Source of the DNA: Cinnamomum chago
Taxonomy: Eukaryota > Streptophyta > Magnoliopsida > Laurales > Lauraceae
NCBI GenBank assembly: GCA_038049695.1
Contig: CP142451.1
Location: forward strand, 5,082,001 to 5,146,000
Direction of reading: 5' to 3'
DNA: 64,000 nucleotides
A program made the position numbers and the translations under genes. Position 1 is the stretch's first letter. Every line of letters starts with the position of its first letter. Shown one piece after another: positions 1-55,225 of this stretch. The notes under the pieces are model-generated. The model was not told the origin of the DNA and ran no database searches. It saw nothing but the letters and a program-made list of their open reading frames with translations.

Positions 1-140
1 CCAGAGAGAGATAGAGAGAGATGCGAGCGAGATTTGGGAAATCGGGCTTTTTGTGTTGTTTTCTCTCAGTCAGAGAAGTGAATAGAAATGATGGATAGAT
101 GCAGTGTACGATGAAAAGACGCGTCAACTCGGTTATATAG
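1..140 (-). promoter_or_regulatory. Core promoter and 5' leader of a minus-strand gene lying left of the window
   Basis: Read on the minus strand, TATATAA occurs at 139-133. It is followed about 30 nt later by a leader containing CT-rich tracts (CTCTCTCTATCTCTCTCTGG at 20-1), typical of plant 5' untranslated regions. No convincing coding sequence starts within the window, so the gene itself would lie to the left. This is inferred from composition and spacing only. The LTR retrotransposon begins about 260 bp upstream of this TATA box. Confidence 0.45.
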
Positions 141-391
141 AGCTGGGGTTGGGCGGGCTGACATCTAGTGTTGGTCTTCCACCAAAGGGAGGGTTTGGGT
201 ACGGGGTTGGGGTCATGTTTTTAGGGTCGGGAATGGATCCAGTCTGCCTCGGATGGACTGGATTAAGATGCTTGATGATGGAGGGTTTTGAGATGTGGGG
301 ATGATTTGGTTGGGTGTTTTAGGGTTGGTAATGGACCTAGGTTTGGATTGAGTTTGTTATTAATGGAGGATTTGGATTATGGGATGGTTTG
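140..391. other. Flanking DNA between the left promoter and the retrotransposon
   Basis: G/T-rich single-copy-looking DNA. I see no gene or repeat in it. It would be the upstream promoter region of the left-hand gene, continuing after the retrotransposon at 11638. Confidence 0.4.
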
Positions 392-396
392 TGTAG
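392..396. repeat. Target site duplication, left copy (TGTAG)
   Basis: TGTAG at 392-396 is repeated exactly at 11633-11637, directly outside the TG...CA ends of the two LTRs. A 5-bp duplication is the expected footprint of an LTR-retrotransposon integrase. Confidence 0.95.
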
Positions 397-1086
397 TGTG
401 TGGGGTCGTTCGGTGCTCGCAGATGTAGGTGGGGTCACTCTCCAGTCTCGGTTACCATTGGTCTCGGCACCGTTTAAGGTCGGCCGCAATGTCATCTCGA
501 GAGGACCGTAGGGTGAGTCTTGGTGGCTACGTCACGAGTCCCGACCTCGGCCTCAGCCTCTTCTCGGCCTCTTTCCCGATCTCGGCCCCTGTCACTCAGC
601 CATTAATGTGGCCATAAATGCGCTGCCATGACGGGATCGGCAAACTGACAACAGAGCGGGCGCCAGACCCAGATAAGGAGCACGCCTTATCTAAAGTCAT
701 GTCCATAGGCAAGGGGTGCTGGTCCGATGGGACATTCCCTTTTTACCTCCCCCCCATTCAGGAGGTACGAATACACGCTGATGGGACTGTCATCCCTTCA
801 TGTGAGCAGTACTATGATGACTTTCACGACTATATATTGCATGAACGCAAACCAGGTAAGGAGGAGAATCCTTCCTTCTGAGCACTCTCTTCCTTCATTC
901 CCTTTCAATTCTCGCACTGACTTGAGCGTCGGAGGACCTTCGGCTGCCCATAGCCAGGGTCTCTGACTGTTATCTTCTTCCTTTCAGGTCACCGGAGGCT
1001 CGATCCTTTCCCCTTATCTTCCCCAAAACCTCGAATCAGGAGCTTAACCCTCCATTAACTAAGTCCGTAATTTTTAGGCACTTACA
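397..1086 (+). repeat. 5' LTR
   Basis: 690 bp, TG...CA ends. It matches the 3' LTR with about six differences by eye (near 471, 476, 489, 718, 805 and 956), all transitions. It contains a TATA box and GC-rich U3-like sequence. Short open frames inside it are not genes. Confidence 0.95.
831..838 (+). promoter_or_regulatory. TATA box of the 5' LTR
   Basis: TATATATT at 831-838 (copy in the 3' LTR at 11377-11384) is the best core promoter candidate for the genomic transcript. Transcription would start about 25-35 nt downstream. The start site is inferred. Confidence 0.6.
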
Positions 1087-1088
1087 GT

Positions 1089-1106
1089 TGGCGCCGTCTA
1101 TGGGGA
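1089..1106 (+). other. Primer binding site
   Basis: TGGCGCCGTCTATGGGGA begins two bases after the 5' LTR and starts with TGG, the complement of the tRNA 3' CCA. The first nine bases are of the type pairing with tRNA-Asp-like acceptor ends; the exact primer tRNA was not determined. Confidence 0.8.
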
Positions 1107-1138
1107 CTAGGATCTGTGTCAAAACCTCTACTGAAGCC

Positions 1139-2788
1139 ATGCCTCCAAAGACCAGACACGGTGGTGGAGGGCCTTCGAAGTCCCAAAAAGCATCGTCCTT
1201 CCCGCTACAGAAGCAACCTGCATTTCCACCATTTCCGGAACCACCCCCTGGCCTTCACTCTGCTCTGCCTCCCCCTCCGGGCCCGACCGGGCTGCTTCCC
1301 CCTCCGGGGCCGACCGGGATTCCCCCCGTCGGGCAGGAGCCATCGGGGACCTCGCGTCAGAGGAGGTCAGGGATAAAGTCGAGTGCCGCGCACGTAGAGG
1401 GCATCGTCCAGTCGGCTTCTTCGTCTCGGCTCATAACCACGCGCCTGCGCCAAAATAGCCATCGTGAGACTCCTCGCCACACTGGTGAGCGGCCACACGA
1501 GGGTCCTCAGCAAAACGCCTCCACGGCGGGTCTTCGACGACGAGGCAAAACCCCCGTCGGGACGGGTTCCCGACAGTCCCACCAGCGCGTCCTCAACGAC
1601 GGCCAGTCCTTCCATCAAACCCATGGGGCCAGGAGCGACAACCCCCTGCTCAAAGAGCTCAATGCCCAGCACCAGGCCCTCCAAGACAAAGACGAGGTGA
1701 TTCGTCGCCTCGAGGAACGACTCGAGATAAATGAGAGAAAGTCTCGTAGTCCACTTCCTCGGCGACAGCGAGTCCACCCAGACAACCGAGACCTGAGGCA
1801 GGTCCTCGACGGTAGAAGAAGATACCACTGTGAGGAGGAGGGCTCGAGCAGCAGTCATCTGCCCAGTGGCCTCGGGGGATCGCGGCGCGAGCCAGAACCA
1901 CAGAGACCGGATGACCGGGCGGACTTCAAAGAGTTGCTGGATCATTACGTCAAACAGGAGGTCCAGGCCCGCTTGGCCGAGATCGGGTTCGCCCGAGACC
2001 TAGCTGATGAGCATGAAGAGGGCAATCAGGGCATGTCCCCCTTTTCGCAGGAAATCAAAAAATTTTCTCTCCCTGAGAGATTTAACGTCCCGAGGTTCGT
2101 CCTTTATGACGAAGCCTCGGACCCAGAGGCGCATCTGCGGCATTTCACTCAGCGGATGTCGGTCTGGGGGGACGTCGGTCTCTTGAACTGCAGGGTTTTC
2201 TCATCCAGTCTGGGAGACCTCCCCCTCCGGTGGTTCTGCGCGCTCCCCCCCGGATCGGTCTCGAGCTGGCGGCAGCTCCGGAGCTCTTTCTTTGAAAAGT
2301 TTCAGGCACACCACGTCATCCCGAAGACGGGTAGCAATCTTATGGCGATCCGGATGAAAGACGGTGAGAGTATCACTGCCTTTGCTAGGAGATTCTGGAC
2401 AATATACAGTCAGATTACCGACGCCAACGACGAGATCGCCATCATGTGCTTCAGGGAGGGCTTACTCCCAGGAAACGAACTCCGCAGAGACCTAGTCCGG
2501 AACCCTGTGGCGACGATGAAAGCACTAATGGCAAGGGTGAAGCAGTACATTGAACAGGAGGAAGACGAGGCCCATGGCACAGAGCGGTTCGGATTCCAAA
2601 GAAGCACCAGGCCTCCTCCAGGGAAGGGACATTCCCCAGACCGAGGTCGGATAAGAGGAAGTCCGCCTGCTCTCTCTCAATCTCCTCGGATAACAGCAAG
2701 AGACCGAAGTTCCAGCCCCACAAGCCTGCCGGCGACTCCTACAGAGCCATCAGTGTTGTATTCAGGGAACCCATTTACAGAATCCTAA
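1139..2788 (+). pseudogene. gag: gag polyprotein, frame-broken
   Basis: Gag would form the cytoplasmic particle that packages the RNA. I take the ATG at 1139 because an earlier in-frame ATG (1100) lies inside the primer site. The N-terminal part is proline- and arginine-rich and low in complexity. The capsid-like Retrotrans_gag region lies roughly at 2100-2560 and contains segments such as LPLRWFCALP and AFARRFWTIY. The frame ends at a TAA at 2786-2788. The neighbouring frame used by the next segment is already open from about 2600 and reads better there, so a frameshift near 2575-2640 most likely separates capsid from the zinc-knuckle part. This is one of four lesions in the sense coding region. 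Confidence 0.85.
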
Positions 2789-4182
2789 ATAAGATCAAGG
2801 CAGAACCGTACTTCCAGTGGCCGCGGCCGATGATGAGAGACTCGTCCACCCGAGACCAGCAAAAGAACTGCTCCTATCACAAGCAGCATGGGCACATGAC
2901 CGAAGACTGCTTTGCGCTGAAGTCTCACCTTGAGAGGCTCGTCAAAGACGGGCACCTCCAAGAGTACGTTAAGAAGGAAGAAAGGGTTAACCGAACCCAG
3001 CAACTCGCTCTGCCCAATGATGGCCCTGACGACGACGAACCAGCAGGTATCATCAACGTCATCCACCTGGCCCCCTCCCCAAGTAAAGAAAGTGTCCGAG
3101 CTCGAGTAAAGGCCAGGAGGGCTGCCCATGGCAAGCAGGTGATGTCGGCAGAGCTGGAGAGCGCCCCGAAGAGGGCTAAGAGGGAGAGGCCTAAGATTTG
3201 GTTCTCAGATGAGGACCTAAGAGGAGTCCAGCTCCCCCATAATGACGCCCTAATCCTCACCCTGCGGCTCAACAATTACACTACCAAACGCGTCCTTGTG
3301 GATCCGGGGAGCTCCTCCGAGGTCATCTACTACAGCTGTTTTAAGCAGCTTGGCCTAACCGAATCCGACCTACAGGAGGCTCTTGTCCCTCTGATAGGGT
3401 TCAGCGCCAAACCAGTATATCCCAAAGGCAGGATCTCACTCGAAGTCCGGATCGGAGGCGCAACGAAGATGGCAGACTTCATGGTAGTAGACGCGCCATC
3501 CCCCTACAATGTGATCATGGGACGAAGATGGCTGCATGCCATGGAAGCCGTGCCTTCCACCTTACATCAAAAACTCAAGTTTCCATTGGCAACACCTGAC
3601 GGGGCGTTCGAGATTGTGACCGTGTGCGGAAATCAGCAGATGGCCCGAGAATGCCTCGTAGCCATAACACCTGGGGAGGCGAAGCCGAGACAAGTGCATA
3701 TGGCCGAGCTCGAAGCCGAGATTGAGGATGTTGGGCGAACAACAGGGCAGAAAAGCATAGAGGACCTCACCGATGTCAGGATTAATCCTGCAGACCCCGA
3801 GCGCTACTTCATGCTAGGCAGCCAGCTCCCCGACACCGAGAGGGCCGAGCTGCTAGACTTCCTACTTCTGAATAAGGATGTCTTCGCCTGGACTCCATAC
3901 GAGATGACAGGAGTGGACCCCAAGGTCATGTGTCATAAGTTAAATGTGGATCCCGGGCACAAGCCCATAGTGCAGAAGGCTCGCAGAACGGGGATCCCGC
4001 AGACAGAGGCAGTAATCGAAGAGGTGGATAAGCTCCTCGAGGCTGGGGCGATCCGCGAGGTGTACTATCCCCAGTGGCTCGCCAACACGGTGGTGGTAAA
4101 GAAGAAGAGCGGCAAATGGAGGGTCTGCGTCGATTTCACCGACCTCAATAAAGCTTGCCCCTCCCAAAGATCGATCAGATGA
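2789..4182 (+). pseudogene. pol: gag zinc motif, protease and N-terminal RT
   Basis: This segment continues gag-pol in a different frame from the gag capsid. At 2869 it has the Tat-type nucleocapsid motif CSYHKQHGHMTEDC followed by LKSHLERLVKDG. The aspartic protease is centred on VLVDPGSSSEV, with the active-site Asp at 3301. RT begins around 3950 (KARRTGIP, WRVCVDFTDLNKACP). The frame is lost just after NKACP and ends at 4182: relative to the usual family spacing to LPKIDQ, about 16 nt are missing, which shifts the frame. The product would be truncated before the RT catalytic site. The first ATG at 2830 is not expected to be a genuine start. Confidence 0.88.
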
Positions 4183-6062
4183 TCGACGCCACCTCGGGAC
4201 ATGACAGGAATAGTTTCCTAGACGCCTACCGAGGTTACCATCAGATCCCGCTGCACGGACCTGATGAGGAAAAAACTGCATTTATAACACCTCGAGGCAT
4301 CTACTGTTATAAGGTGATGCCCTTCGGACTGAAGAATGCCGGGGCAACGTATCAGCGGCTGGTCACGAGAATGTTCCAGAACCAGCTCGGGAAGACGATG
4401 GAGGTCTATATTGATGACATGGTGGTCAAGTCCAAGGAGTCGCAGAACCACCTGGCGGACCTACGCCAAACATTTGCCATCCTTCGAGAGTTCCAGCTCA
4501 AACTAAACGCTTCCAAGTGTGCGTTTGGCGTCGGTTCTGGCAAATTTCTGGGCAGCTTGGTAACCAGACGAGGGATCGAGGCTAATCCCGAACAGATTGC
4601 AGCCATCCAGTCAATCCAGCGCCCCACCTCGGCCAAGCAAGTTCAGCGACTCACAGGAATGGCTGCTGCACTCAACCGCTTCATCAGCCGAGCCTCGGAC
4701 AAGTGCCGGCCATTCTTTCAGATCCTGAAGAAAAGTTCCAAGTTCCAATGGACTCCTGAATGCGACCTAGCGCTGGAAGCGCTCAAAAGGTACCTCTCCT
4801 CACCGCCCCTTTTGTCTACTCCGTCGCAAGACGATTTTCTCTATCTTTACCTTGCAGTCTCGGACCATGCGGTGAGCTCGGTTCTGGTTCGAGAAAGCGA
4901 CAAGCAGCAGTATCCCATCTATTACACCAGCAAAACCCTGCTCGACGCTGAGACCAGATACCTGCCACTTGAAAAGCTAGCACTAGCACTGATCAGCGCT
5001 TCTCGCAAGCTCTCCCATTACTTCCAGACGCACACGGTGGTGGTCATCACGGAATTCCCGCTCAAATCCCTCTTCCACAAGGCGGACTTTTCTGGTCGCA
5101 TCTCCAAATGGGCCGTCGAACTAGGTCAATTCGATATCCAGTATAAGCCAAGAACGGCAATCAAGGCACAGGTCCTGGCAGACTTCGTCGTCGAGTTCAC
5201 CTCCCCTAGTTCGGCACCGACCTCGCTCGATACCGAACTGGAGGACCCCAAGAGCAATGACGAAACTGAAACCGAGACCGAGGAAGACCAGTCGTGGGAA
5301 AAATTCCTTAAGTCAGCCTGGAAAGTCTTCGTTGACGGATCGTTAACAACCAGAAGAGCAGGCGCCGGCGTTGTCCTTCAATCTCCAGAAGGACTAGTCA
5401 TTGAGCAAGCACTGACCCTGGGCTTCAAGGCATCAAATAATGAAGTAGAATACGAAGCACTGATCGCTGGTCTCGGTAGTGCAAGAATACTGGGGGCACG
5501 CCTGGTGGTAGTCTTTAGTGACTCCCAGTTGGTGACGAGTCAGCTGAGCGGAGATTACCAGGCCAGAGATGAAAGAATGATGGCCTACCTAGCCCACACC
5601 AGGCAGCTCCTCTCCCAGTTTGAAAAAGCTGAAGTCAGGCAGATCGGCAGGGAGTCCAATCGCCATGCGGACGCCCTAGCAAGCTTGGCCTCGGCCGTAG
5701 AAGCTGGAAAGAGAAGGACAGTTGATGTGGGGGCATTGGAAAGACCGAGCATAGAGCCCCTCCCAGTTCGGCAAGTTTTGTGCACTGATCTCGGTCCAAG
5801 CTGGATGGACCCAATCGTGACATTTTTGAAAGAAGATAAGCTCCCTGAAGACAAGACTGAAGCCCACAAGGTCAGGATGAAAGCAGCTCACTTCTGGCTA
5901 TCACTGGACGAGAAGCTCTACAGAAAATCCTATTCAGGACCATACCTCCAATGCGTCCATCCGAGCAAAGTGGAGGACTTCCTCTTTGAAATTCACGAAG
6001 GAATCTGTGGAAGCCACATCGGGGGAATGTCACTGGCTTACAGAGCTATTAGCCAGGGCTAA
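4158..6062 (+). pseudogene. pol: RT palm, RNase H, second RNase H, start of integrase
   Basis: It resumes pol after the RT deletion. The RT catalytic motif YIDD is encoded at 4407-4418, preceded by MPFGLKNAGATYQRLV. The RNase H linked to RT follows (about 4840-5190; YTSKTLLDAETRYLPLEKLA). A second, archaeal-like RNase H lies at about 5320-5700 (VFVDGS, NNEVEYEALIAGL, FSDSQLV, NRHADALASLA), with its acidic residues present. This domain is diagnostic of the Tat clade. The integrase zinc-binding domain begins at HEGICGSHIGG. The frame stops at TAA (6060-6062), which falls where the family has a Tyr codon before WWPYM, so this is a nonsense mutation rather than a natural end. Confidence 0.9.
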
Positions 6063-7025
6063 TGGTGGCCCTACATGCAGAAGGATGCCCAGCTCTACGC
6101 CAGAAAGTGTGAGAAATGCCAGAAGTTCTCCCATTCCCTGCATCAGCCAACTCGGGACCTGAGTCCCCTCTCCAGTCCGTGGGGGCTGGACATCGTGGGT
6201 CCTCTTCACCGCAGTCCAGGGAACAAGAGATGGTTAGTGGTGGGCACTGATTACTTCACAAAATGGATAGAGGCAGAGGCCTTGTCCTCCATCACCGAAC
6301 ACGACACAAAGAATTTTGTATGGAAAAACATCATCATAAGGTTCGGAATCCCTAGGGCTCTGGTCTCGGATAACGGGACCCAATTCGATTCAAAACTCTT
6401 CAGAACTTTCTGCCAAGAGCACGGTATCAGAAACCTTTATGCGACTCCGGCCTACCCACAGAGCAACGGGCAGGCAGAAATCTCAAACAAGGTGGTGCTG
6501 GATGGACTCAAAAAGAGACTCGATAAAGCTAAAGGCAGGTGGGTAGAAGAATTGCCAAGTGTCCTCTGGGCATACAGAACCACTCCGAGGCGGTCCACTT
6601 CAGCGACTCCTTTTTCACTGGCCTATGGGATGGAGGCCGTGATCCCTCTCGAAGTTGGCCTCCCAACATTGAGGACGAACCTCTTTGATCAAGGGCAGAA
6701 CGAAATAAACCTCCCCAGATAGCTCGACCTGGCCGAGGAACGAAGGGAAGCAGCGTCCGTACGCCTGGCAGCCTATCAACGGCAGTTGTCTCGAGGATAT
6801 AATCAGAAGGTTAGAGAAAGAAGGTTCTCGGTTGGAGAACTAGTCTTGAAGAAAGCGCTCCCAGCTGATAAAGATCCTAACGAAGGTAAACTTGCGCCAA
6901 ACTGGCTTGGCCCCTACAAAGTGGTCTCAGTCTCAGGAAGATCGGCCTACAGACTTGAAGGGATGAACGGCAGGGAGTTGCCGCGACCGTGGAACGCTAC
7001 ACACCTCAAGAAATATTACTTCTAG
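6063..7025 (+). pseudogene. pol: Integrase core and C-terminal domain with internal stop
   Basis: The same frame continues after the TAA. It completes the zinc finger (CEKCQKFS) and contains the DDE core: Asp in GLDIVGPL, Asp in VSDNGTQFDS, Glu in SNGQAEISNK. A second nonsense codon, TAG at 6720-6722, interrupts it. Beyond that the frame stays open to the natural-looking stop at 7023-7025, with a C-terminal module containing WLGPYKV and the conserved ending RPWNATHLKKYYF. The integrase would insert the cDNA copy into the genome; here it is unlikely to be made intact. Confidence 0.9.
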
Positions 7026-7100
7026 TTGTATTCAAAATGGTTGATCAATAAAGAGGAACCTTTTCACAAAGATCTGCCTTATATCTTTCCAGTTGTAAAC

Positions 7101-7640
7101 AAGGCTCCGGCCCTCGTGCCAGCCTCTTTGAGCTCGGTCACAGGACCAACTCTCCAAGGCTCCGGCCCTCGCGCCAGCCTCTTTGAGTTTGGTCACAGGA
7201 CCAACTCCCCAAGGCTCCGGCCCTCGCGCCAGCCTCTTTGAGTTCGGTCACAGGACCAACTCCCCAAGGCCAGCCTCTTTGAGCTCGGTCACAGGACCAA
7301 CTCCCCAAGGCTCCGGCCCTCGCGCCAGCCTCTTTGAGTTCGGTCACAGGACCAACTCCCCAAGGCTCCGGCCCTCGTGCCAACCTCTTTGAGTTCGGTC
7401 ACAGGACCAACTCCCCAAGGCTCCGGCCCTCGCGCCAGCCTTTTTGAGTTCGGTCACAGGACCAACTCCCCAAGGCCAGCCTCTTTGAGTTCGGTCACAG
7501 GACCAACTCCCCAAGGCTCCGGCCCTCGCGCCAGCCTCTTTGAGTTCGGTCACAGGACCAACCCCCCCAAGGCTCCGGCCCTTGCGCCAGCCCCCTAGAA
7601 ACCAGTCGCAGGGCCAAGGCTTTGTCCCTCGCAGCAACAC
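7101..7640. repeat. Nested tandem repeat, 55/41-bp units in a 206-bp higher-order array
   Basis: Units starting AAGGCTCCGGCCCTCG begin at 7101, 7156, 7211, 7307, 7362, 7417, 7513 and 7569. Shortened 41-bp units lacking the 14-bp CTCCGGCCCTCGCG segment begin at 7266 and 7472. The order 55-55-55-41 is repeated twice (7101-7306 and 7307-7512), giving a 206-bp higher-order period, before a degenerate end. It lies between integrase and the antisense gene. The array is free of stops in several frames on both strands, which explains the open frames across it; I do not regard those as genes. Confidence 0.95.
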
Positions 7641-7947
7641 CGAGCAACAATCGCCACGGAATGCGAGTACAACCAAGGAATGCTCACCAAAAATAAAGAT
7701 ACGCCCCCAGCTCTCCAGCGAATGGGCCGTATCTCAGGGTATGGGCCCAAACTAACTGCAAATTCCTTCCTGAGACGGAAGAGAGGGTTAAAGCCTAGAT
7801 ATGTTTTACCGACCTCAAAGACTTGCAAGTTTTTGCACCAAAAAGAAAGAGATATGGAAACAGTTGAAGAATCAAAAAGAAAAATTCGTCTTTTCATTAA
7901 TGAAAGGATAATACAGAGTTTTTTGTACAATCCATAGAAACAAAATC
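7641..7947. other. Spacer after the tandem repeat, 3' side of the antisense gene
   Basis: No gene is supported here. It would hold the 3' untranslated region of the antisense transcript. I did not find a clear AATAAA on the minus strand. Confidence 0.4.
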
Positions 7948-10330
7948 CTATTGCTTCTCGGCCGCTGCTTCTGTATTTTTTGGGGCTGGAGGATGTGACG
8001 GGGCAGAAGCGTCAGATGGAGGAGCCAGAGAAGGAGCCTGGGTCGCTTCGGCCTCGGCGAGGGTCGGAGAAGGAGGGGGCATGTCTGGAACTTCGATAGG
8101 GGTCCCAGGAGGATTGGAGCCAGACTCTGATCCTGAACTCGGCACTGCAGGCTGAAACTTGGGAAGATCCGCGAATATGGGATCGTCCTCAGAAACCCCG
8201 TATTTGCGGAGAGCCTCCTTGCACCCCATCTCGAACAGCACCGGGCTCAAATCCGTAATTTGAGCCACATACTCCTCCGATGCCCAGTCCACTCCATCTT
8301 GATAAGCTTTCGCAGCCTAGGCCCTCAGGGTGGACTCGACATCGGCCCTCTCTTTCCTGGAGGCCTCGAGCTCGGTCTCCTTCTTGGCCAGTTCATTCCG
8401 CTTTTCAGCAAGCTCGGCCTCCCTCTTCGCGAGCTCGGCCCCCTTCGCTGCAAGCTCGGCCTCCAGTTCAGCCGTCCTCCTCGCCTTATCATCAGCGGCA
8501 CCCCTCAGGTTTTTGTTCTCGCCCCGCAACTTGATAATTTCGGTCTTTGCCGCCTGTTGCTCCGTTGCGTGTTGGGCGAGTTTCTCCTCCGACTTCTTTA
8601 TTTCAGCTGCACTCACCTCCAGCGCAGTCCCCATTTTCTTCTTCTCCTTCTCCAAGGCGGCGATGTAGGCAATTCTTTCTTCCAGCCTATCCATCAGTAC
8701 TTGAGTCCTCTGTACATTCTGCAAAAAGATAAAAATAGTAAGGGGATCAAGTCGAGCAACCAGGAGTCAGAAAATTGAAACCAGAAGGAGGAAAAAGCTA
8801 CCTCAAGCGACGCCCTCATCGTCTGATGAAGTAGACCCGATGACCCAACTTTCTTATGCTTTTCCATGTCCAGGGGGAGGGCACATCCCCGGGCTAGGGC
8901 CACAACCGACTCCCAGCCGCTCTCCCATGGTCATGGGCTCGTTCGGGTTGAGGTCAAAGTTGGGCCTCCAGGGTGCCGGCACGGAAGGTTCGGCATGCAC
9001 CTCCGCTCCTTGGGGCCTCCCCTCCGCGCCCTCCAGGCGAGGCCTCTTCTCGGGAGGGGGCCCCCTGCCCTCCTTTCCGGCCTCGACGGTTCGAGACCGA
9101 GTCTCCCTCTGCGGCTGCGGCGGAGGCAGCAGAGCCTCCTTCGCAGGTTCGACCACCCGTGGCCTGCTGTCCTTAAGCGGACGAGGTTCCTTGGGCTGTC
9201 GGACGTCCTTGGGGTGTTCCACCGACCTCCCCTTAGCTTTGACGGGGGTGGCCCCAGCCGCTACCGACGCTGCTCCTGATGAGCCGGAGGAGGCGCTAAC
9301 AACGGAGCCCGGGCCGGCACTTGACCCACCGGGGGCGCGCTTGGGGGCAGGGGGAGCTCGGCCCCCGAAGATAGCAGCACCCAAGTTCTTCAAGGTGGGG
9401 CGCTGTCCTTCCATCTCTTCTTCTTCTCCTCCTTTTTGACTTCGGGAGGGAGGGCTGTCAGTAATGACAATCGGATCTTGGGACTCCGTGGCTTGGCCGT
9501 TGGTCTCGGCAAGCCCGAGTACGACCTCCCCTACCGGTGCGAGGGGGACCTCGGCAGTCTTGCTAGTATAAGACCGGTACCGCGGTTTGTACCCAAGAAG
9601 AGAGAAGGCAGCTCGGTCGTGGTGATCGTGGTAATTACTAATCTTCTCCAACCACGCGTCGTTCCTCTTCCACTTGTCGAAATTGGCCTCCCTCCTCCTC
9701 TTCTGAATGCCTGCGTAAGAAAACAGCAAGGGCGTCAGCTCGGCATAAAGAAAAGAGCAAAAACAGCACGAAGGACAGGTATTTACTGGGAGGGGCCCCA
9801 AGTTTCCGTGGGACCTGGATTCTCCTCTCCACTTCGGTCTCGGTACCCTTGAACTCCCAATTCCCCGAGACCAAGATCCGTTCGTATCCGGCGTACTTAT
9901 TCGAGTCCTCTAGGGCATTCACCAAGGGCTGACGCCTGGGCTTCACCCGGAGATAGTAAAAATCCTCACCCCCTGCAGCTTTGCAGATGTCATAAACATC
10001 TTCTATGTCATGTACCCCGAGATCGATGTCGAGGATCCAGTTTAGCTCCGCCACGCCCATTATAATCTTGAAACCATTTGGCATCAACTGGAAGGGGCAG
10101 ATGTGCCACGCATTGAGGCAGGACCGGAGGAGCTGATGGATGGGGAACCGGACCCCCCCTTCGCACACCGACATCAGGGTGAAAGGCATCCAGTTGTTAT
10201 ACCGGGAAAGGCCACCAGGAAGGTCCCCGAGGTCGTCAGGTTTAACCAAGACGTCGGCCGGGATCTTAAACGACAATCTAAAGGCTTCCAAGGCTGCAGG
10301 ACCCTCTAACCAGTGGCTATAAATCCCCAT
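7948..10330 (-). pseudogene. Antisense extra gene of the retrotransposon (Transposase_28-like plus coiled coil), spliced and broken
   Basis: Three exons run opposite to gag-pol. Exon 1 (10330-9788, plus one base at 9787) starts at an ATG and resembles the plant 'putative gypsy type transposon' domain (PF04195-like; FPIHQLLRSCLNAWHICPFQLMPNG). Intron 1 is 9786-9711 (76 bp, GTAAAT...TTACGCAG) and keeps frame. Exon 2 (9710-8802) is basic, then Pro/Ser-rich. Intron 2 is 8801-8719 (83 bp, GTAGCT...TTTTGCAG). Exon 3 (8718-7948) is a long coiled coil rich in Glu, Lys and Ala, followed by a Pro/Ser tail. Two lesions are visible: a frameshift within about 8911-8930, and an in-frame TAG at 8319-8317 after which the same frame reopens to 7948. 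Function is unknown; related antisense ORFs exist in other Tat elements such as Grande. Confidence 0.8.
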
Positions 10331-10600
10331 TTCTTAGAAGGATGGGAGGCAGGCGACTAAGAATGAAAAACTGGAAAAACCCTAAAAGGACCTAAACCTT
10401 CTGAAAGCGAAGAGAAGAAAGGAGGCACAAAGAAATAGCAGAGAGAGAAGACTCACAGAAAGGATGCTGAGGATTACTGAGGACGGAGAAGCAGAAGGCT
10501 AGGGAGAATTCGTGTTTCAGCAAAATCTGTGGCAGAACTTCGTCTTCAACAGAGCTCTCCTTCTCAGACAAACGGCCAAGGTAAAAGAGAGAGGGAAGGG

Positions 10601-10775
10601 GGCGCTTCCATTTTTATAGAGGGAACGCCCCTCTTCATTACCCTGCCACGTGTCGTTTCGATCCCGGCGACCGACCAGACAGGAGACTCCACGTGGCGGC
10701 AACGGGTCGCCTTCCCCCACGCCTCTGGTACGATATATTATCACCTCGGGCATACGGAACGGCGTCCCACGTGCT
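10601..10775 (-). promoter_or_regulatory. Promoter of the antisense gene: TATA box and three G-boxes
   Basis: On the minus strand TATAAAAA occurs at 10618-10611, about 280 nt upstream of the antisense ATG. Farther upstream lie three palindromic CACGTG G-boxes at 10647-10652, 10690-10695 and 10768-10773, two of them within ACGTGGC/ACGTGTC contexts that resemble ABA-response elements. G-boxes bind plant bZIP and bHLH factors. Activity is inferred. Confidence 0.6.
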
Positions 10776-10925
10776 TGACAAAGCGAAGTCATTATGGTGC
10801 CCTATTTATTGCCTAGGGCAGACGGAGGCGCGTCATGATGAGAATCTCATAAAAGCAAGATACGAAAGGACGGCCCCATCGCTTCCGAATCGTATCTCCC
10901 GACCCCGGACTAAGCCCAAGGGGTC

Positions 10926-10942
10926 GAGAGATAGGGGGCAAT
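10926..10942 (+). other. Polypurine tract
   Basis: GAGAGATAGGGGGCAAT lies directly before the 3' LTR, where plus-strand DNA synthesis is primed during reverse transcription. Confidence 0.85.
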
Positions 10943-11632
10943 TGTGTGGGGTCGTTCGGTGCTCGCAGATGTAGGTGGGGTCACTCTCCAGTCTCGGTTA
11001 CCATTGGTCTCGGCATCGTTCAAGGTCGGCCGCAACGTCATCTCGAGAGGACCGTAGGGTGAGTCTTGGTGGCTACGTCACGAGTCCCGACCTCGGCCTC
11101 AGCCTCTTCTCGGCCTCTTTCCCGATCTCGGCCCCTGTCACTCAGCCATTAATGTGGCCATAAATGCGCTGCCATGACGGGATCGGCAAACTGACAACAG
11201 AGCGGGCGCCAGACCCAGATAAGGAGCACGCCTTATCTAAAGTCATGTCCATAGGCAAGGGGCGCTGGTCCGATGGGACATTCCCTTTTTACCTCCCCCC
11301 CATTCAGGAGGTACGAATACACGCTGATGGGACTGTCATCCCTTCATGTGGGCAGTACTATGATGACTTTCACGACTATATATTGCATGAACGCAAACCA
11401 GGTAAGGAGGAGAATCCTTCCTTCTGAGCACTCTCTTCCTTCATTCCCTTTCAATTCTCGCACTGACTTGAGCGTCGGAGGACCTTCGGCTGCCCATAGT
11501 CAGGGTCTCTGACTGTTATCTTCTTCCTTTCAGGTCACCGGAGGCTCGATCCTTTCCCCTTATCTTCCCCAAAACCTCGAATCAGGAGCTTAACCCTCCA
11601 TTAACTAAGTCCGTAATTTTTAGGCACTTACA
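10943..11632 (+). repeat. 3' LTR
   Basis: 690 bp, same ends and length as the 5' LTR, followed directly by the TGTAG duplication at 11633-11637. Confidence 0.95.
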
Positions 11633-11637
11633 TGTAG
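11633..11637. repeat. Target site duplication, right copy (TGTAG)
   Basis: Exact match to 392-396. Confidence 0.95.
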
Positions 11638-11719: not shown

Positions 11720-12910
11720 TATATATATTTGAAATCTTTAGATCATCATCATCAAAGTTTTGTTAGTTGTTGTGGAATCTTATAATGTCTTTGACAGAAA
11801 ATGAAAGTGAGTTTTATTATATCGGTTATTAGGTTGATAGATGGAGTGGGCTTACCCTTGTGCACGATGAGACCTTTTATGTCTCTTGTCACCTCTATTT
11901 GTAGGGTGTGGATTAGGATAATAGATGAAGTTGGGCAAACCTAGTGCATGATGAGACATTTCCATCTCCTTTACTTTTATTTATGTAGGCAGAGATCCTA
12001 ATGGGAACCACGAATAAGACGGTAAGGCATATCAATAATATATCATCAGTTGACGAGTAAAGTTTGGAGCATGTGTCTATTTATATGTATTTTATCCTAT
12101 ATTATTTGGATTCACGAACTCATATATAATGAGACCTTGATTTGGATTCGAGTCTATTGACATTTATTATTTATTCACAATCTCTAGATCATCGTCATCA
12201 TTAAAGCCTTGTCAGAGTTAAGTTATGAAATCTTAAAACGTCTTTATTTAGTGAACAGCCTTGTCAGAGTTAAGTTATGAAATCTTAAAACGTCTTTATT
12301 TAGTGAACTTCATTATAACAATTACAAGGATAATAGAGGGAGTTGCCTATCATCCTATGTGATGAGACATTTTTATCTCATTTAACCTATATTTATAGGC
12401 ATGGATCTCAATGGGAACCACGAATAAGACCACGATAGCATATCAACAAATGTCACTCGTTGACGGATATATATTCTCCAACATGTGTTTATTTATATGT
12501 ATAATATCCTATATCATTTCAAGTCATCAACTCGGATATAACGAGACCTTTATATGGAGTGAGGCCTGTTAACATTTACTATTTATTCACAATTTTTAGA
12601 TAATTGTTATCATTAAAGCCTTATCAAAGCTATGTTATGGAATTTTAAAATATCTTTGTCTAAAAACGTAGGGAACTTCATCAAAACAATTAGGAGTATG
12701 TGATAAGACATTTCTATATGCATGAACTAGGGTAAATAGATGAGGTTCATCGATCCTCGTACATGATGAGACCTTTCTATCCTCTTAACCTTTATTCATA
12801 GGGATGGTCGGATGGATCTTGATGTGAACCATTAATGGTAGGGCCAGTCCGCTAATGGGTAAAAATTCTCCAACACGTGTTAATGTATATTTATAGTATC
12901 CAATATCATA
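11720..12910. repeat. Degenerate tandem repeat with about 405-bp period
   Basis: Blocks beginning GATGAGACATTT...TATTTATAGGCA near 11952, 12355 and 12762 recur with the same following order: GGGAACCACGAATAAGAC, a CATATCAACAATATGTC-like segment, GTGTTTATTTATATGTAT, then ACGAGACCTT and TTTATTATTTATTCACAATCT. A partial first copy precedes them. The copies have diverged. No coding sequence was recognised. Confidence 0.75.
12205..12308. repeat. Exact 52-bp tandem duplication
   Basis: 12205-12256 is repeated exactly at 12257-12308 (unit starts AGCCTTGTCAGAG, ends TTTAGTGAAC). It sits inside the 405-bp repeat and is recent, as no difference has accumulated. Confidence 0.95.
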
Positions 12911-16738: not shown

Positions 16739-19700
16739 TCAAAACTCATAAGTTAGCTTAGTTCTCCATGTACTTCCGATAACCTTCTTGGGCGATGGAT
16801 CATTCGGTCCCCTGTCACGTTGTCCAGACGTGAAATACAGCCATCCATTCCAGAATCCAACAAGCGTAGTTTTAATACGGAAAGGCATCTTCCCAAGGAC
16901 TGACCACTCCTGTATACAGATAAAGTTCCAATCAGACTAGTCATCAAAACCAGAAAACATAAGCATTTGTAAGGGCACAGGCAATGAAAGAATGGGATCG
17001 AGAAAACTACATGAACCAAATACACAAATAATTGACAACTAAATTAAAGGACTATAGGCACCCTACAGAATTAGTTCATAAGATAGCCGATAATTATGCC
17101 TATATTATAAAAATTTATTATTAAAATGAAAATTTTTAGAACCACAATCTGCATAGAGCCTGTTGAGAGATGTTTCACCAAACCATGGGCCCAAAATGCA
17201 CTTGATTAGAATCATCAGCAACCATACATTAGCTGTGTGGTGCATGATACTTAAATTACTGATGAAGCAAAGTACATAAAGCTGTGAGATCAAGCTGACC
17301 TTGATCCAACACATAAAACATAAGCCAGATTTCAGCACAACAAACGCAATTCATATTTGAGTAAGAAAAACATATTTGAACTATGAAGCATTTCTGTTTC
17401 ATGGTTGAACTGGATGGCAAATCCCATTTGCTTAAACTTCTCTTTTAGGAATGAGATGCAATCACAAAAAGCAAAACATTGTTTCGTTTGTCCAGACTGT
17501 AATTAAGAAGTCTCCTTTCCAGTTTGAGATTTTAGCCAAATTTTAGTAGAAGGGAGCACTTCTCATCTTCATCATTTGATAATTCTTTGTACATGCATAG
17601 GAAGGGAAATTACCTGATGATTACAATGAACTATGACATTATATATTTTGGTAAAACCAAGGTATTCACACGTTAGTCAAAGCTCAAATTGCATTGGATT
17701 GAGCTCACAAAAAAGTGTGAGAACAAAGAAAAGAGCAACTCATTGAAATAACATCCAAGAATCCCTAACTCTGGGAAAAAAACCAAAATCAAAATTGTAA
17801 ATAGCACCTTGATGCCAGCAACGAAAGGCCATATGATGTAATAGAAGATGATGCGCCAATCTGTTGATAATTCACCCAACCTATTTTTAATTTTGGTTGC
17901 AGCTACTTAGTATATGTAGTTTCATAGAGATTTTTCCAGAGCCTATTCTAATTTTTTTTCTTGGGGGTTGATGGGATGTGGGAGGGGTGTTTCATACTTT
18001 TATGAGGAGGGTTATAGGTTGGGGAGTGTTTTTTTTTTTTTTTTTTGAGAGCGTTATGGTTTGGGGAGAAGAGGTTATACAATTTTCCATATGCTGTCCC
18101 CTAGTAGGATTCCCAAATGCTCAAGTACAATCTAGCATTTAAGAAACAGGAATTTAGAGAATTCCAAAAGCAAGAGTGAAATTTCAAAAGGTACGATTTT
18201 GAATTCCACTTTTCCAAAAGGGGATTCCAAAAGATCCATATACAGCTACTGACAATGCTGCCAGAAATTCTAACACATGGAATGCCAGTCAGAAATTCCT
18301 CTAAACAAACAGGCCCCAAGGCTATAAGCCACTACCATCTTTGAAAATTTATTTTAGTACGAAGACCATCTGATAGGTTAGACAATAGAAGGGTTTTAGA
18401 GGTCTCTTTAGAAAAAGGTACGTGTAACAAATGTTATCTTTCAGGAATATTTGCATGAAAGTGAAACTGTATGATGAGTTTTGCTTTATGGGTATGATTA
18501 TTAAGACATTTTTTCATCTAGTGGGTATGAAGCCCACCTATGCTGGTGTGAAGACAATATATACTGATTATACAATGTACCATGTATAATGCATAATTTA
18601 TTTCCTTTTTTTTTTCCCGTGACCCTATACAATCTAATGTGTTGCGTATTTAATTAGAAAGGGTTGAACTAAGTTGAATCTGCATCACATCTAGAGAGAC
18701 AAGCTTCAAGTAAGTGTCGAGCATTATTTATAATAATAAAGGTTTCTAGCAAGCATTTAAATGGAGCTTCCGTGGAAATTCATGTGGAAGATGGGACATG
18801 ACAATGGTTAAAAGAATCATGAGAGAAAATTTATATGTGATAGCATGGGAGGGTCATGTTTTAGATCAATATTAGCAGGATTTCCACCAAAATAAATATA
18901 TCACATTTCACCAGAAGTTCATTAGTAATCACTATGTAAACTATTGGAAAGCATTAGTACCAATGTATCCAAATGAAACTGTAACAGTTCTCCAACTAGC
19001 ACCATCCTTTTGGTCACAGGATGCTTTTCCGTCGTTCCACCCGCAATAATTAAGGAATTGTTGACAATAACCCATGCAAACTCTATATGGGAGTCGGGTT
19101 TTGGCATGGGAGGCAATTGTTTCCACTTCATCTCATCATCCAGCATGTAAACATCACTGTAGACTACCTGAAACAAAGGATAACATTCAGCTATGTTTTG
19201 AAAAAGAGCACAAGTTACACTAGCTTGGCTACTTCTGTAGCCATGAAGTAGTAGTATCCAGAGAATATGATCATGATATACAAAGGCATTGTAGCTTTAT
19301 CCAACTATATCTTGAACACAGTTTAATTATTAAGTATGCTGCAATATTGTAGTCCATTATATATTATGTGTTTATTGTAAATAAACAGAAATAATAATAA
19401 AACACAGTATGGAAATCTAGTTACTTGTTCATCTTAAATGTTGCAGGACATGATTTGACTGTCATATTAATATATGGCACGATGCATACTACCATACAGC
19501 ATCATTTGGTTTATTACAAAAAGCTTATTCTTCTATTTAATTTCTGGACTTGGCATCAGAGCAATGTTCCATGAATCTAGCCAGATCCAATTGTATCTTT
19601 TTTCGTGGGGACCACTTACTAGTCCATAAGGTCAGTGTAAGGATGAAGTACATCCTAATTGATGGAAACTTGGTGATTTGTGGAGGTTTTTGGCACTTTA

Positions 19701-22700
19701 ATGATAGTTTCGATGGGATATAAGGTGTGATTGTCAAGGGAAAAAAAATCAATTTAAGGTTCTCTTGATTTGGTTTGCATCGGCTTTCTGCATGATTCAA
19801 ATCGTATCTCATTGATAGAAGTTCATTCATCGGAGTTCTTTGAAGAACTGCTACTGAGGTTTTTCACTCAGCCCATTCTTCAATAATATTTTTTATGATA
19901 ATATAAAACTAGCACAAGAACTTGTGTTGAGCACGAGTCTGTCCATGCAATGCAAACTAAATATTCATGCAATTGGAAAATAATTATTGACTTGAGTGGC
20001 GGCCCAAATACATTGCACAACAGTAAGTAAATTTTTCGAAAGACAGCAAAAACAGAAAATATATGACCGTACTTATTTTTGCAATTGAGAGTAGATAGAG
20101 CAGAGAGCAAATAGGAGAAGTGAGGTAAAAAAAAAAAAGAAAAAATATGTAGAAATGAGAAAAGGAAATGTGAGCAGAAAGGCACCTTTGCAGAGAAACG
20201 AAAAAGGAAAAACAAGTAAGTTACAAGAGACATGGGTAGTTACATGAGATGAGATGGGTATCGCATGGGATAAGAAGTGGGCAGTTACAAGAGATGGGGA
20301 GGAGGGAATAACTAACAGTCAAAATCACAACTGAAGGTCCAAATTAGATTAAAAAGGCTTAGCTTTAATATAGTATAATTGCATCGATAGGGATAGGGAT
20401 AGGTTTTTTTTTTTTTGGGAATAGGGGTAGTGTTGTTATGATGCCCAAGACTTATCAGATCACACTTTCGGGAAAATTGGTAGTTGTGATATTGTTTAAA
20501 GGAATTCTGGTGTTCCAAGGGGCCGATTTTGTTCAAAGGAAGATTATTTGGTACAACAGCTACAAGGATGGTTTCAGAAATTCCATTAAACCATGATGAG
20601 GTTTGGATATAGGTGAAACCATGTGAATCATACCTTATCATCTTAAAAGCGGTGGAGGCATAAAATTCCTAATTTTATACCTTGATGAATCATGGTTAAG
20701 AGTGATGATCTTCTTGACAGGTAAAACAATAAAAAATTTAGGGCCAACATTTTGTTCACTGGTCTCTATCAGAATACTAAAGGTGTTGTATGCTGTTCCA
20801 GTGCAGCTCACAGACAGTTGAGGTGCAGTCTACATGTATCGAATACATTTCTATCAAGAGGTTGGGCTGAAATAATCTCAGATGGTATCTTCAGTTCCTA
20901 TGAAACCAACCAAGGGGTCTATGAAGTTGATGAGGGACTATACATATACATACATTTCAGCAAGTAGGTAATGTCTGTTCCGTTCTTTGTTCATCAACCT
21001 TAGTGCTGAAGAAGGGCCGTGAAAGGTGTTCGGGTTTTACAATAGAATAGTTGTAAGGCTCTTGGTATTTGGTAGACACTGTATTGTCTTCTCCATAATG
21101 GCAACATCCGCTTCTTTTGACATTTTGTCCATAGGTAGAAGTAATAGTGTCTGGTACAGATATTAGGATTATCTGTATACTTCCCTTCCACTAAAGGGAC
21201 CAAATTACATGTAATGGTTCAAAGAAGTGGAAATGCACGTCTATGGAAAACATAAGTGACGAGTCATATATGGTAGCATCTAAGAGAAAAGTGAAGATTC
21301 ATATATGCGAGTTAGTTCAATCTATTGTCTGGATGGTTTTGGAATGGGCAAGTAGGCATCAGATTCTGTTGGGATTCCTATGGAAGATCTTCATAAATCA
21401 TGGGCAGCTTGTTTTAATGGCGGAAGAAGCTCTAGACTGGTTCGTACAGTTAGTTGGCATTCTCCTCCAAAAGGTGTTTTGAAGCTGAATTTTTATGGTA
21501 GTTTTGTTCATCAAATTTGTATGGGAGGAATTGGTGGTGTTATCCGTAATTGAGAAGGGAAGGTTGTGAAGAATTTTTCAGGACCGATTAATTCATTAGA
21601 TGCAAACGGTGCTGAAATGTTTGTGTTGTTGGTGGGTTGCCGTGAGTTGCAGAATTTGGGATGTTATAATGCAATTATTGAAGGAAACTCCTTTTTCTGC
21701 TATTCAATGGGGCTCAAGAAAAACTTCTTTTCCTTGGAGATTGGTGGATTGGGTGGAGGAGGTGCAAGCTATTTCTTCTCAAATGAGGTTTACTTTTTGT
21801 CACATCTTCAGAGAAGTGAATGATATGGCGGATGCTCTTGCTACGGAAGGAGTCTTTCGTTTACACATTTCATTTAATGTTTAATTTCTTGAGTTGTTAA
21901 TCTTCTTGTTTTTTCATCCGATGTTTGTTTTTCTTTTCCTGTTGTTTTCGGCTCTTCTTAATAAAATTTACTGTTATAAAAAAAATAAAAATAAAAAAAG
22001 TCAGGTGAGGATGATCATAAACATCTATATTGGAAGGTCAATAATTCAATGGTTTATGTCAATGCTTTTGGATGCTATGGAAGGATATGTTAGAGGGGTT
22101 TGTAAATATCCAAGAATCTTTCTCCATGATTGATAGAAAGGGAAGCTACACAGTCTGCGGTTTTATATACATGGAATTGTGGATACCACTCCATTCATTT
22201 CTCTTGGGAGTTGGGAAAGGACTGTTGGGAGTGAAATGTGAGCCCAAACAAGTATTGGTTACGCCTTACAAAGCTTGACTAACTCCCCAGAAGAAGTCTA
22301 AAACCTTGCTAATAAAAAAAAGAGAAAAAAAATGCTCTTTCGTCTTTCGAGATATGGACTTCTAAAACCTTGCTAACAAGAAAAGAGCAAAATAAATGCT
22401 CTTCTTCTCCCAAGATAAAGATCTGGAAGCTTCTTCTCCTTGCTTGCTTCCACTACAACTGACGAACTATAGCATTTACCCCTTCTTAACACCTTCCCAT
22501 AGGAGTCCTCTCAGTCCAAAAGGCTATTCCAAGTAGCAGAGGAGGAGGTCAACAGGGCCCAAAGCAAACGGTGGATTTTCACATTAAATGGATTGCCTGT
22601 CGGCCCTGCCCTGCCACATTTAATGAAAATGGAGGCCTTCCTGAGGCCGGTTTGTTTACATGAAAGGAGTATAAGAGGAATAGGGGACGAATCATAAATA

Positions 22701-22918
22701 AAGTTAAAGATGAGGTTTAAAGTAAAAAGGCACTACAAGACAACTTTTACTTGAAAAGCGGGGAAAACCCCTACTTTATGTAACTTCATCAGCGCCCCCC
22801 CCCCCCCCCCCCCCAAAAAAAAAAAAAAAAGGATATTTCCACTTGGCCCGACCTTGGGGACCGGGCCAAAATCCGGTCCCTAAGTCGGGCTACCTAGCAC
22901 GGTTGAAAAAAAAAAAAC

Positions 22919-22955
<37 letters not shown>

Positions 22956-24722
22956 ATTCAAATAACTTAAGGGCACGTTTGTGTACATGTAATTTTTGTG
23001 GAAATTGTCACATCAGCAAAATCCATGGGTTCTAAATTCTTTGGAAAAGTTTTTCCGCAGAAGTCAAAATTTTATGCTTGGTGCAAAAAGGTTTTCCTAG
23101 ATGAATTAGTGCTAATGTTGTTTGGTGCAGCTATGGATTTCTTTAGTGAAAACCACTTTTTAGTGAAAACTATTGGGTGGGTGGGTTGGTATGTGTGTGA
23201 GTGGGTGGGTTGGTGTGTGTGTGTGTGTGGGTGGGTGGGGTTGGGAGGGGAAGAGGAAGAAAGTGGGTGGCTGGGTGGAGTGAGGGTGAGAGAGAGGAAA
23301 TTAGGGGGTCAATTTTTCGTGGAAATGAACTTCCCATACACCCCCATAGGAAGTCTATTTCCATGCCTAAGAAGGAAAAAGCTGACGTGACGAAAAAGCA
23401 TTTCCGCAGAAAACTGCCACTAAATACATAAAAAAGAAGTTTTCCGCAGAAAACTACAACCTTTTCCGCGGAAATGGGCTACACAAACATGCCCTAAGAG
23501 TAAAACTTTATGTCACATCAATTTTAATTCTTCGATCCAAACACCAAGAAGTAAAACTGTCACATCAGCCCCTTTTTACTCCTCTTCTACTCTACTTCCT
23601 GCGTACGAATAGGGTAGAAGGCTCCGCGTAGGAACCCTTACATCACATAATTTCCCCACATCTTCCCCTTTTTGCCTATTTCTCCTTTTGGTATTTGTTC
23701 TGGTCTTCCTGTTTCCAAGAACTCATGTTCCAACCACTTGGAAATGTGAGAGCCTTTGTTGCCTCTTCATCTTCCCTGCCACACACACCGTCACAAGTCC
23801 ATGCCTGGAAAAGAGACTACCGAGTATTTGCATGGTGGGTTCCTGTTTATCAGCTTCCAAACTACCGTTGAAACCCATACCTTATCCGACCTGTCTTCTC
23901 CTCACAGGCTGTTGCTGTCCTCCAGATGTTCAAAAGAAAATTGGAGTAGACTGGCATTGAACTATGAAATAAAATTGGCATTGAACTATAAAATAAAATT
24001 CATCTCTAGTATTTGAAGAAATCCAATTTTAAATTGGTTGAGCAAAAAAGAAGTGAAGACCTATATGGATGAAAGTTGAAACAAATTGGTGAACTATGAA
24101 AAATACCAAATTGTGAAATCCAGACTCGATTACCAATTGGTTGATAGTGAATCAAGTAAGAATGAAATAAATAATAGCTATAATTCACTATATTCACTTG
24201 TTCATACAATTTGTCACTCTTCACTTTCTTTCCAGTTGATTTTACCCAAAAGATGCTCCCCAAAGGCTACGTCATAAGAAGAAATGTGTTGCAAGTGCAA
24301 GGTACTGCAAGAAAGCGGAGACTAAAAAAGACTTGAAACTTGGAAGGCAATTGTTTGATGCCAACACATAAGGTTGTAAGGCGAGCTCAATAACCACAGT
24401 AGGAGACTTTAAGGCAAGTCTCTTGTGCCGTTTGTTTTAATAAATTTTAAATATTAAAAAAAAAAAAAGGTTGTAAGGCGAGCTGATAAAGAACTTGGCA
24501 CCAAGAAGGGGTGGCATCGTGACAGAGCAATTATTACAAATGCTATTATAATACTAAAGTTTCCATTTGTTGGATGGACACATTTGAGCAGTGAATTGAC
24601 ATGTCGGCACCTTCGTTTTCAGTGTGTGTGTGTGTGTGTGTTTGTGTGTTTTCAGTGTGTGTCTCTGTGTGTGTGTGTGTGTGTGTGTTTTCAGTGTGTG
24701 TTTTCATGTGTGTGCGTGTTTT

Positions 24723-24775
<53 letters not shown>

Positions 24776-55222: not shown

Positions 55223-55225
55223 TTA

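What the first reader, a model, noticed from the sequence alone, without database searches (positions are those of the whole stretch)
7948..10775. Spliced antisense gene inside a Tat retrotransposon, with its own promoter
Seen: three exons on the minus strand with two frame-keeping short introns (76 and 83 bp, good plant donors and acceptors), an ATG, and a TATA box about 280 nt upstream. Known: antisense extra ORFs occur in some Tat elements (for example Grande), and PF04195-like domains are widespread in plant genomes. Inferred: the gene is expressed from its own promoter, and because spliced introns in an antisense gene would survive retrotransposition (the genomic RNA is sense), the element can carry a normal intron-bearing gene indefinitely. 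A domain-plus-coiled-coil architecture suggests a structural or RNA/protein-binding role for the element.
Basis: partly seen in the sequence, partly recalled or inferred. Interest (0 to 1): 0.8.

Follow-up and report, generated by a model that had tools for sequence, protein, structure and literature searches.

The report
Broken spliced antisense retrotransposon gene
A plant jumping element carries, on its opposite strand, an extra gene that appears to be split by two short introns; this kind of antisense gene is already known, but its intron-split, one-protein structure is not described in the papers I could read, and this particular copy is broken.

Summary
Window 397-11632 is a complete Retand-type Tat (Ty3/gypsy) retrotransposon: 690-bp LTRs with 6 differences and a perfect 5-bp target duplication. 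Cinnamomum gene models (577-688 aa) match the exons; for 4 of 6, similarity stops at the intron 1 donor and resumes at its acceptor. Intron 2 is supported more weakly. A TATA box and three G-boxes stand upstream, and no ATG lies in the 260 nt before the start. Pol is broken too. Antisense "Transposase_28" ORFs are a published hallmark of the Retand lineage, and Grande's gene23 is published as having its own promoter. What may be new is that the N-terminal-domain ORF and the coiled-coil ORF are exons of one spliced gene. Expression, splicing in RNA, dN/dS and the genomic setting of the relatives could not be tested.

The parts
392..396 (.). target-site duplication TGTAG, left
397..1086 (+). 5' LTR, 690 bp, TG..CA
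   Evidence: 99.13% identical to 10943-11632, 6 differences, all transitions
1087..1101 (+). primer-binding-site-like sequence just after the 5' LTR
   Evidence: sequence; the PBS label is recalled, not matched to a tRNA
926..2788 (+). stop-to-stop frame holding gag (PF03732); begins inside the LTR, first ATG not assigned
   Evidence: E 2.2e-11
2554..4182 (+). open stretch in another frame holding the protease (PF13650)
4152..6062 (+). open stretch holding most of RT (profile from position 61 on), RNase H and a second RNase H (RVT_3)
6063..6722 (+). integrase, separated from the former by an in-frame stop at 6060-6062
7100..7617 (.). tandem repeat array, mainly 41 and 55-bp units, between pol and the antisense gene
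9787..10330 (-). antisense gene exon 1: ATG, Transposase_28-like (PF04195-like) domain, 181 codons plus 1 nt, open
9711..9786 (-). intron 1, 76 nt, phase 1, GTAAAT..TTACGCAG
8802..9710 (-). exon 2: conserved start, Pro/Ser/basic low-complexity middle, conserved end; broken by a frame change
8900..8920 (-). place of the frame change inside exon 2
   Evidence: P0019 matches 8979-8920 in frame -2, then 8900-8799 in frame -3
8854..8856 (-). premature TAA that follows from the frame change
8719..8801 (-). intron 2, 83 nt, GTAGCT..TTTTTGCAG (weaker support than intron 1)
7948..8718 (-). exon 3: coiled coil, conserved C-terminal block and stop; interrupted by TAG at 8317-8319
10613..10618 (-). TATAAA of the antisense gene, 288 nt before the ATG
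10647..10773 (.). three G-boxes (CACGTG at 10647, 10690, 10768), 29-150 nt from the TATA box on its upstream side; 3 of the 9 in the whole window
10331..10590 (-). assumed 5' leader: 67% pyrimidine, no ATG in 260 nt
   Evidence: the start of transcription is assumed
10926..10942 (+). polypurine-tract-like sequence before the 3' LTR
   Evidence: sequence; label by position
10943..11632 (+). 3' LTR
11633..11637 (.). target-site duplication TGTAG, right

Best explanation
The feature is a decayed copy of the antisense accessory gene of a Retand-lineage (Tat, Ty3/gypsy) retrotransposon in a flowering plant, probably a magnoliid. In intact relatives the gene makes one protein of about 640-690 aa from three exons: an N-terminal Transposase_28-like domain (exon 1 and the start of exon 2), a disordered basic/proline-rich linker (exon 2), and a coiled coil with a conserved tail (exon 3). 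It would be transcribed from a TATA/G-box promoter lying between its ATG and the 3' LTR, apart from the LTR promoter. Its introns would be spliced only from the antisense mRNA, so the sense genomic RNA carries them unspliced into new copies. Most likely the protein oligomerises through its coiled coil and acts in the nucleus for the element, as a regulator or scaffold at element DNA. Supported here by sequence: element anatomy, exon-intron structure (intron 1 well, intron 2 less), conservation in relatives, damage in this copy. Inferred: transcription, splicing in RNA, promoter use, nuclear action and function.
For: Complete element with 99.1% identical LTRs and a perfect TSD. Domain order gag, protease, RT, RNase H, second RNase H, integrase. 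Gene models P0017, P0018 and P0021 match exon 1 to 9788-9791 and resume at 9708 after 1-2 residues; P0019 ends and resumes one codon further on. Of 10 unspliced relatives that reach the site in frame, 9 have S-K or S-N there, as A|GTAA would read. P0005 reads through 26 intron-like residues into EIGQRRSEA, which a phase-1 splice would turn into KIGQRRSEA, against KVGQRKSEA in P0018 and KIRQRRREA in P0021 (inferred from protein letters, DNA not seen). Helices predicted at residues 443-632 of P0017, with block pLDDT of 70 or more mainly in 491-530 and 551-590. Three G-boxes in 612 nt upstream, 0 of 2000 shuffles reach three; one TATAAA, present in 105 of 2000 shuffles. No ATG in the 260-nt assumed leader. 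Published: antisense Transposase_28 ORFs in all but two of 63 Retand clusters; gene23 of Grande transcribed from its own upstream promoter, protein nuclear.
Against: This copy has a frame change and two early stops. No RNA data were available. The Cinnamomum proteins are annotation models; neither RNA support for their introns nor their genomic setting (in a Retand element or not) was seen. Two of the 6 models (P0020, P0022) lack the end of exon 1 and do not show the junction cleanly. Similarity around intron 2 is patchy. Several unspliced relatives simply end near the donor, so the end of their alignment says little by itself. The PF04195 match is below its cut-off (17.3 against 26.2 bits); 16 of 20 aligned members match at E<=0.05, the best at 9e-5. 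Neumann et al. 2019 found Transposase_28 in 23% of Retand elements, call the extra ORFs highly divergent and question whether they have a function (passage). The donors are not strong. The N-terminal domain was not resolved (mean pLDDT 48.7).
Confidence: 0.7

Rival explanations
1. There is no splicing: the antisense strand holds separate ORFs (a Transposase_28 ORF and a coiled-coil or SMC-like ORF) translated on their own, as the published ORF-finder annotation lists them.
For: Vicient 2025 lists 104 antisense ORFs, 57 with TRP28 and others with Smc-like matches, and the word intron does not occur in its text. Donors here are middling. Several relatives end within a few residues of the donor.
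Against: Long gene models join the blocks at the predicted intron 1 sites and phase (4 of 6), and P0005 shows the intron-like stretch in place. Whether the exon 2 and exon 3 blocks have starts of their own was not tested.
Confidence: 0.12
2. The antisense transcript matters, not the protein: it pairs with the genomic RNA and triggers or tunes silencing; the ORF is incidental.
For: Raised as a possibility for these elements in the 2020 review (passage). This copy is coding-dead but keeps its promoter-like region.
Against: Identity of 48-69% to 16 relatives in one frame and long open models only 40% identical to each other (P0017 and P0019) point to selection on the protein. The two roles can coexist.
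Confidence: 0.15
3. A host gene inserted or captured recently in this one element.
For: It has introns and promoter-like motifs, like a host gene. The setting of the Cinnamomum relatives was not seen.
Against: An antisense gene with this kind of domain at the same place is a hallmark of the lineage in eudicots and monocots.
Confidence: 0.03
4. A chance open frame opposite a non-coding region.
For: The exons are GC-rich (37-45% AT), where long open frames arise more easily.
Against: 351 aa exceeds all 500 shuffles; homologues with E down to 2.4e-70 in this frame.
Confidence: 0.01

Closest known systems
Antisense TRP28 (Transposase_28, PF04195) ORF of Retand-lineage elements (Vicient 2025, PMC11963269; Silene Retand ORF4)
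   Same: Place (pol to 3' LTR), antisense strand, Transposase_28-like domain, tandem repeats nearby, long pol-3'LTR region.
   Different: Published as separate ORFs found by ORF Finder, the word intron absent; here one gene of three exons joining that domain to a coiled coil. Window match is below the Pfam cut-off; host probably a magnoliid, a group without elements in that survey of recent copies; this copy is broken.
gene23 of maize Grande (as described in PMC7264820, passages; original paper not held)
   Same: Antisense gene between pol and 3' LTR; own promoter upstream.
   Different: Sequence relation and intron content of gene23 were not compared here; promoter activity is published there, only inferred here.
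HBZ / APH-2 of HTLV-1 / HTLV-2 (passages of PMC3736048)
   Same: Spliced antisense gene in an LTR element, expressed apart from the sense genes.
   Different: Their transcripts start in the 3' LTR; here the promoter-like region is outside the LTR. The proteins were not compared. An analogy of working, not a claim of descent.
Ogre (Tat) sense-strand intron (passage of PMC6317226)
   Same: Intron in a Tat-clade element.
   Different: Ogre's intron lies in the sense RNA between the gag-protease and RT-integrase ORFs; these lie in the antisense gene.

Membership tests
Retand lineage (Tat, Ty3/gypsy) | gag, protease, RT, RNase H, second (archaeal-type) RNase H between RNase H and integrase | tested here: met
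   PF03732; PF13650; PF00078, PF17917/PF17919, PF13456; PF00665 in that order. Shared with Ogre
Retand lineage (Tat, Ty3/gypsy) | pol-3'LTR region of 2.9-6.6 kb with antisense ORF(s) | tested here: met
   6722 to 10943 is about 4.2 kb; antisense gene inside it; published range
Retand lineage (Tat, Ty3/gypsy) | RT groups with Retand RTs in a tree | not tested
   no reference RT set was fetched
Plant LTR retrotransposon | TG..CA LTRs and a target-site duplication, usually 5 bp | tested here: met
   TGTAG on both sides; usual length as stated
PF04195 Transposase_28 | score at or above Pfam's cut-off (26.2 bits) | tested here: not met
   window exon 1 17.3 bits, E 0.0056; 16 of 20 aligned members match at E<=0.05, best 9e-5. 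Called Transposase_28-like, not filed as a member
Recently active Retand element (PRARE of Vicient 2025) | identical LTRs | tested here: not met
   6 differences in 690
Spliced antisense accessory gene | intron 1 conserved in relatives | tested here: met
   4 of 6 gene models; P0005 read-through
Spliced antisense accessory gene | intron 2 conserved in relatives | tested here: inconclusive
   exon 2's end matches P0019 to 8799 and P0021 to 8796 in frame -3; P0017-P0020 run on into the exon 3 block without room for it; similarity is patchy, so this only leans to yes
Spliced antisense accessory gene | spliced antisense RNA | not testable with these tools
   no RNA reads at hand
Spliced antisense accessory gene | intact reading frame in this copy | tested here: not met
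   frame change about 8920-8900, TAA 8854-8856, TAG 8317-8319

The most novel reading that the evidence does not exclude
Across the Retand lineage the separate antisense 'TRP28' and 'Smc-like' ORFs are exons of one ancient, intron-bearing gene for a nuclear coiled-coil protein. It was taken in as unspliced sequence and has been carried with its introns since early flowering plants, because only the antisense mRNA is spliced. The introns would then bear on the open question of the gene's origin.
Probability: 0.3. Interest if true: 0.65.

Novelty: new variant of a known kind. Interest (0 to 1): 0.4.

Why it matters
The function and origin of the antisense genes of Retand elements are open questions in print, and the 2020 review asks for antisense and spliced transcripts to be looked for. 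A conserved intron-split structure would unify ORFs so far listed apart, correct how these genes are searched for (ORF finders miss spliced genes), and show that LTR elements can keep ordinary introns for long on the antisense strand.

Tried and rejected
Own-genome search for siblings did not complete (10 attempts), so no sibling DNA, copy number or dN/dS. Scans of viral contigs with the exon 1 alignment (68 pattern matches) and with pol (1) and of prokaryote contigs (26) gave no confirmed relative. A protein search with the exon 2 frame alone (residues 64-190) found none at E<=0.01 among 344 candidates. No solved structure matched the exon 1 profile at E<=1. Both structure predictions were poor for the N-terminal domain, so no fold search was made. 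A possible short intron in the 5' leader was seen by eye and left aside (untested). A scan for basic clusters printed only positions and was not used. The papers on Grande gene23 (2013) and on extra ORFs (2011) are not held, so I cannot say whether they describe introns.

Full report
What is there. Window 397-11632 is a complete LTR retrotransposon. Two 690-bp direct repeats (397-1086 and 10943-11632) are 99.13% identical, with 6 differences, all transitions. They start TG, end CA, and are flanked by the same five bases, TGTAG. Inside, on the plus strand, stand gag (PF03732), an aspartic protease, reverse transcriptase, RNase H, a second RNase H of the RVT_3 type, and integrase, in that order. 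A second RNase H between RNase H and integrase is the arrangement that Neumann et al. 2019 give for the Ogre and Retand clades (passages). The pol-3'LTR stretch of about 4.2 kb, its tandem array (7100-7617) and the antisense gene fit Retand as described by Vicient 2025 (parts 1-3 of 5 of its text read). I did not build an RT tree, so the lineage rests on these features.

The antisense gene. On the minus strand an ATG at 10330 opens a 181-codon exon, followed by a 76-nt GT..AG intron (9786-9711), a 909-nt exon, an 83-nt GT..AG intron (8801-8719) and a 771-nt exon ending in TAG at 7948.

Is it real? Exon 1 with its run-on has 16 relatives at E<=0.001 among 354 candidates, 45-66% identical in the alignment. 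A search with exon 1 plus the start of exon 2 found 6 long proteins (577-688 aa), all from Cinnamomum micranthum, among 581 candidates. Placed back on the window by tblastn, P0017, P0018 and P0021 match exon 1 down to 9788-9791 and resume at 9708, leaving one or two residues for the split codon; P0019 ends and resumes one codon further on. P0020 and P0022 lack the end of exon 1. So 4 of 6 models show the junction as predicted. These are annotation models: I saw neither RNA support for their introns nor whether they lie in Retand elements.

The unspliced relatives give a second line of evidence. Of the 10 that reach the site in frame, 9 have serine followed by lysine or asparagine, which is how A|GTAA reads as protein; P0011 differs. 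In 8 of the 10 the alignment to the window ends within 14 nt beyond the last exon base, but most of these proteins themselves end within a few residues of that point, so this count is weak by itself. P0005 is the most telling. It reads straight through 26 intron-like residues and re-enters exon 2 at EIGQRRSEA; a phase-1 splice would give KIGQRRSEA, close to the KVGQRKSEA and KIRQRRREA of the models P0018 and P0021. I saw only its protein letters, so this step is inference.

Intron 2 is weaker. Exon 2's end matches P0019 to 8799 and P0021 to 8796 in frame -3, with modest identity, and P0017-P0020 run on into the block that matches exon 3 without room for the 83 nt. I count this as leaning to yes.

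P0019 matches 8979-8920 in one frame and 8900-8799 in another, so exon 2 changes frame in between; the upstream frame ends at a TAA at 8854-8856, before intron 2. Exon 3 has an in-frame TAG at 8317-8319. Relatives such as P0017 and P0018 continue through these places. Gag-pol is split over four open stretches in three frames, with RT divided between two of them and an in-frame stop at 6060-6062 before integrase; a division between gag and pol is normal in part of the lineage. So this copy is dead for pol and for the antisense protein, although its LTRs are nearly identical.

Promoter. TATAAA lies 288 nt before the ATG. One TATAAA in these 612 nt is only mildly unusual (105 of 2000 shuffles hold at least one), but three G-boxes (CACGTG) within 127 nt are striking: 0 of 2000 shuffles reach three, mean 0.03, and the whole window has 9. 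They lie 29-150 nt from the TATA box on its upstream side. The 260 nt before the ATG hold no ATG and are 67% pyrimidine. All this lies between the gene and the 3' LTR, not in the LTR. It is consistent with an own promoter, as published for Grande gene23 (passages of the 2020 review), but is not proof of use.

Protein. The N-terminal part resembles Pfam Transposase_28, below its cut-off (17.3 of 26.2 bits); 16 of 20 aligned members match at E<=0.05, the best at 9e-5. AlphaFold did not resolve it (mean pLDDT 48.7). In P0017 helices are predicted at 443-632, with block means of 70 or more mainly in 491-530 and 551-590, and 544 of 688 residues below 50, in line with a coiled coil after a disordered linker.

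Selection. No DNA of siblings could be fetched, so dN/dS was not computed. Indirectly, P0017 (688 aa) and P0019 (639 aa) are both open while only 40% identical, which a neutral frame would hardly survive. Gene models can skip stops, so this is suggestive only. Against it, Neumann et al. 2019 found Transposase_28 in 23% of Retand elements, call the extra ORFs highly divergent and question their function (passage).

What is known. Vicient 2025 reports antisense TRP28 ORFs in all but two of 63 Retand clusters and lists other antisense ORFs with Smc-like matches apart; the words intron and coiled do not occur in its text. The 2020 review describes own-promoter antisense transcription in Grande and asks for antisense and spliced transcripts to be looked for; the word intron does not occur in it (passages). 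Eight paper searches showed no title or abstract start that describes introns in this gene; apart from the papers named I saw listings only, and those were capped at 12-20 of 58-8,218 papers. The key Grande and extra-ORF papers are not held. HTLV HBZ and APH-2 are a precedent for spliced antisense genes (passages).

Host. The named relatives are Cinnamomum and Persea, so the host is probably a magnoliid; this is inference. Vicient 2025 found no recently active Retand elements outside eudicots and Liliopsida.

Verdict. The kind of gene is known, the intron-split one-gene structure is a variant I did not find in print, and function remains inferred.

Noticed in passing
window 18922-28403, minus strand: Kelch-motif exons of a host gene (Kelch_1 E 7.9e-9 at 28050-28403; weaker, below cut-off, at 18925-19296 and 24549-24968), on the same strand as the antisense gene; the element ends 7 kb away.
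   Followed up: partly
window 397-1086 and 10943-11632: All 6 LTR differences are transitions, as decay of methylated cytosines would give (inference).
   Followed up: no
window 7100-7617: Tandem array of 41- and 55-bp units between pol and the antisense gene, as published for about half of recent Retand elements.
   Followed up: partly
window 54750-55247 and 22971-23390: Two similar open frames on the plus strand sharing a stretch like KKVFLDELVLMLFGA..DFFSENHFLVKTIGWVGWY, so a dispersed repeat of some kind occurs twice in the window.
   Followed up: no
window 12070-12662: Direct repeat of 181 nt, 80% identical, just outside the element, overlapped by a perfect 52-bp tandem pair at 12205-12308.
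   Followed up: no
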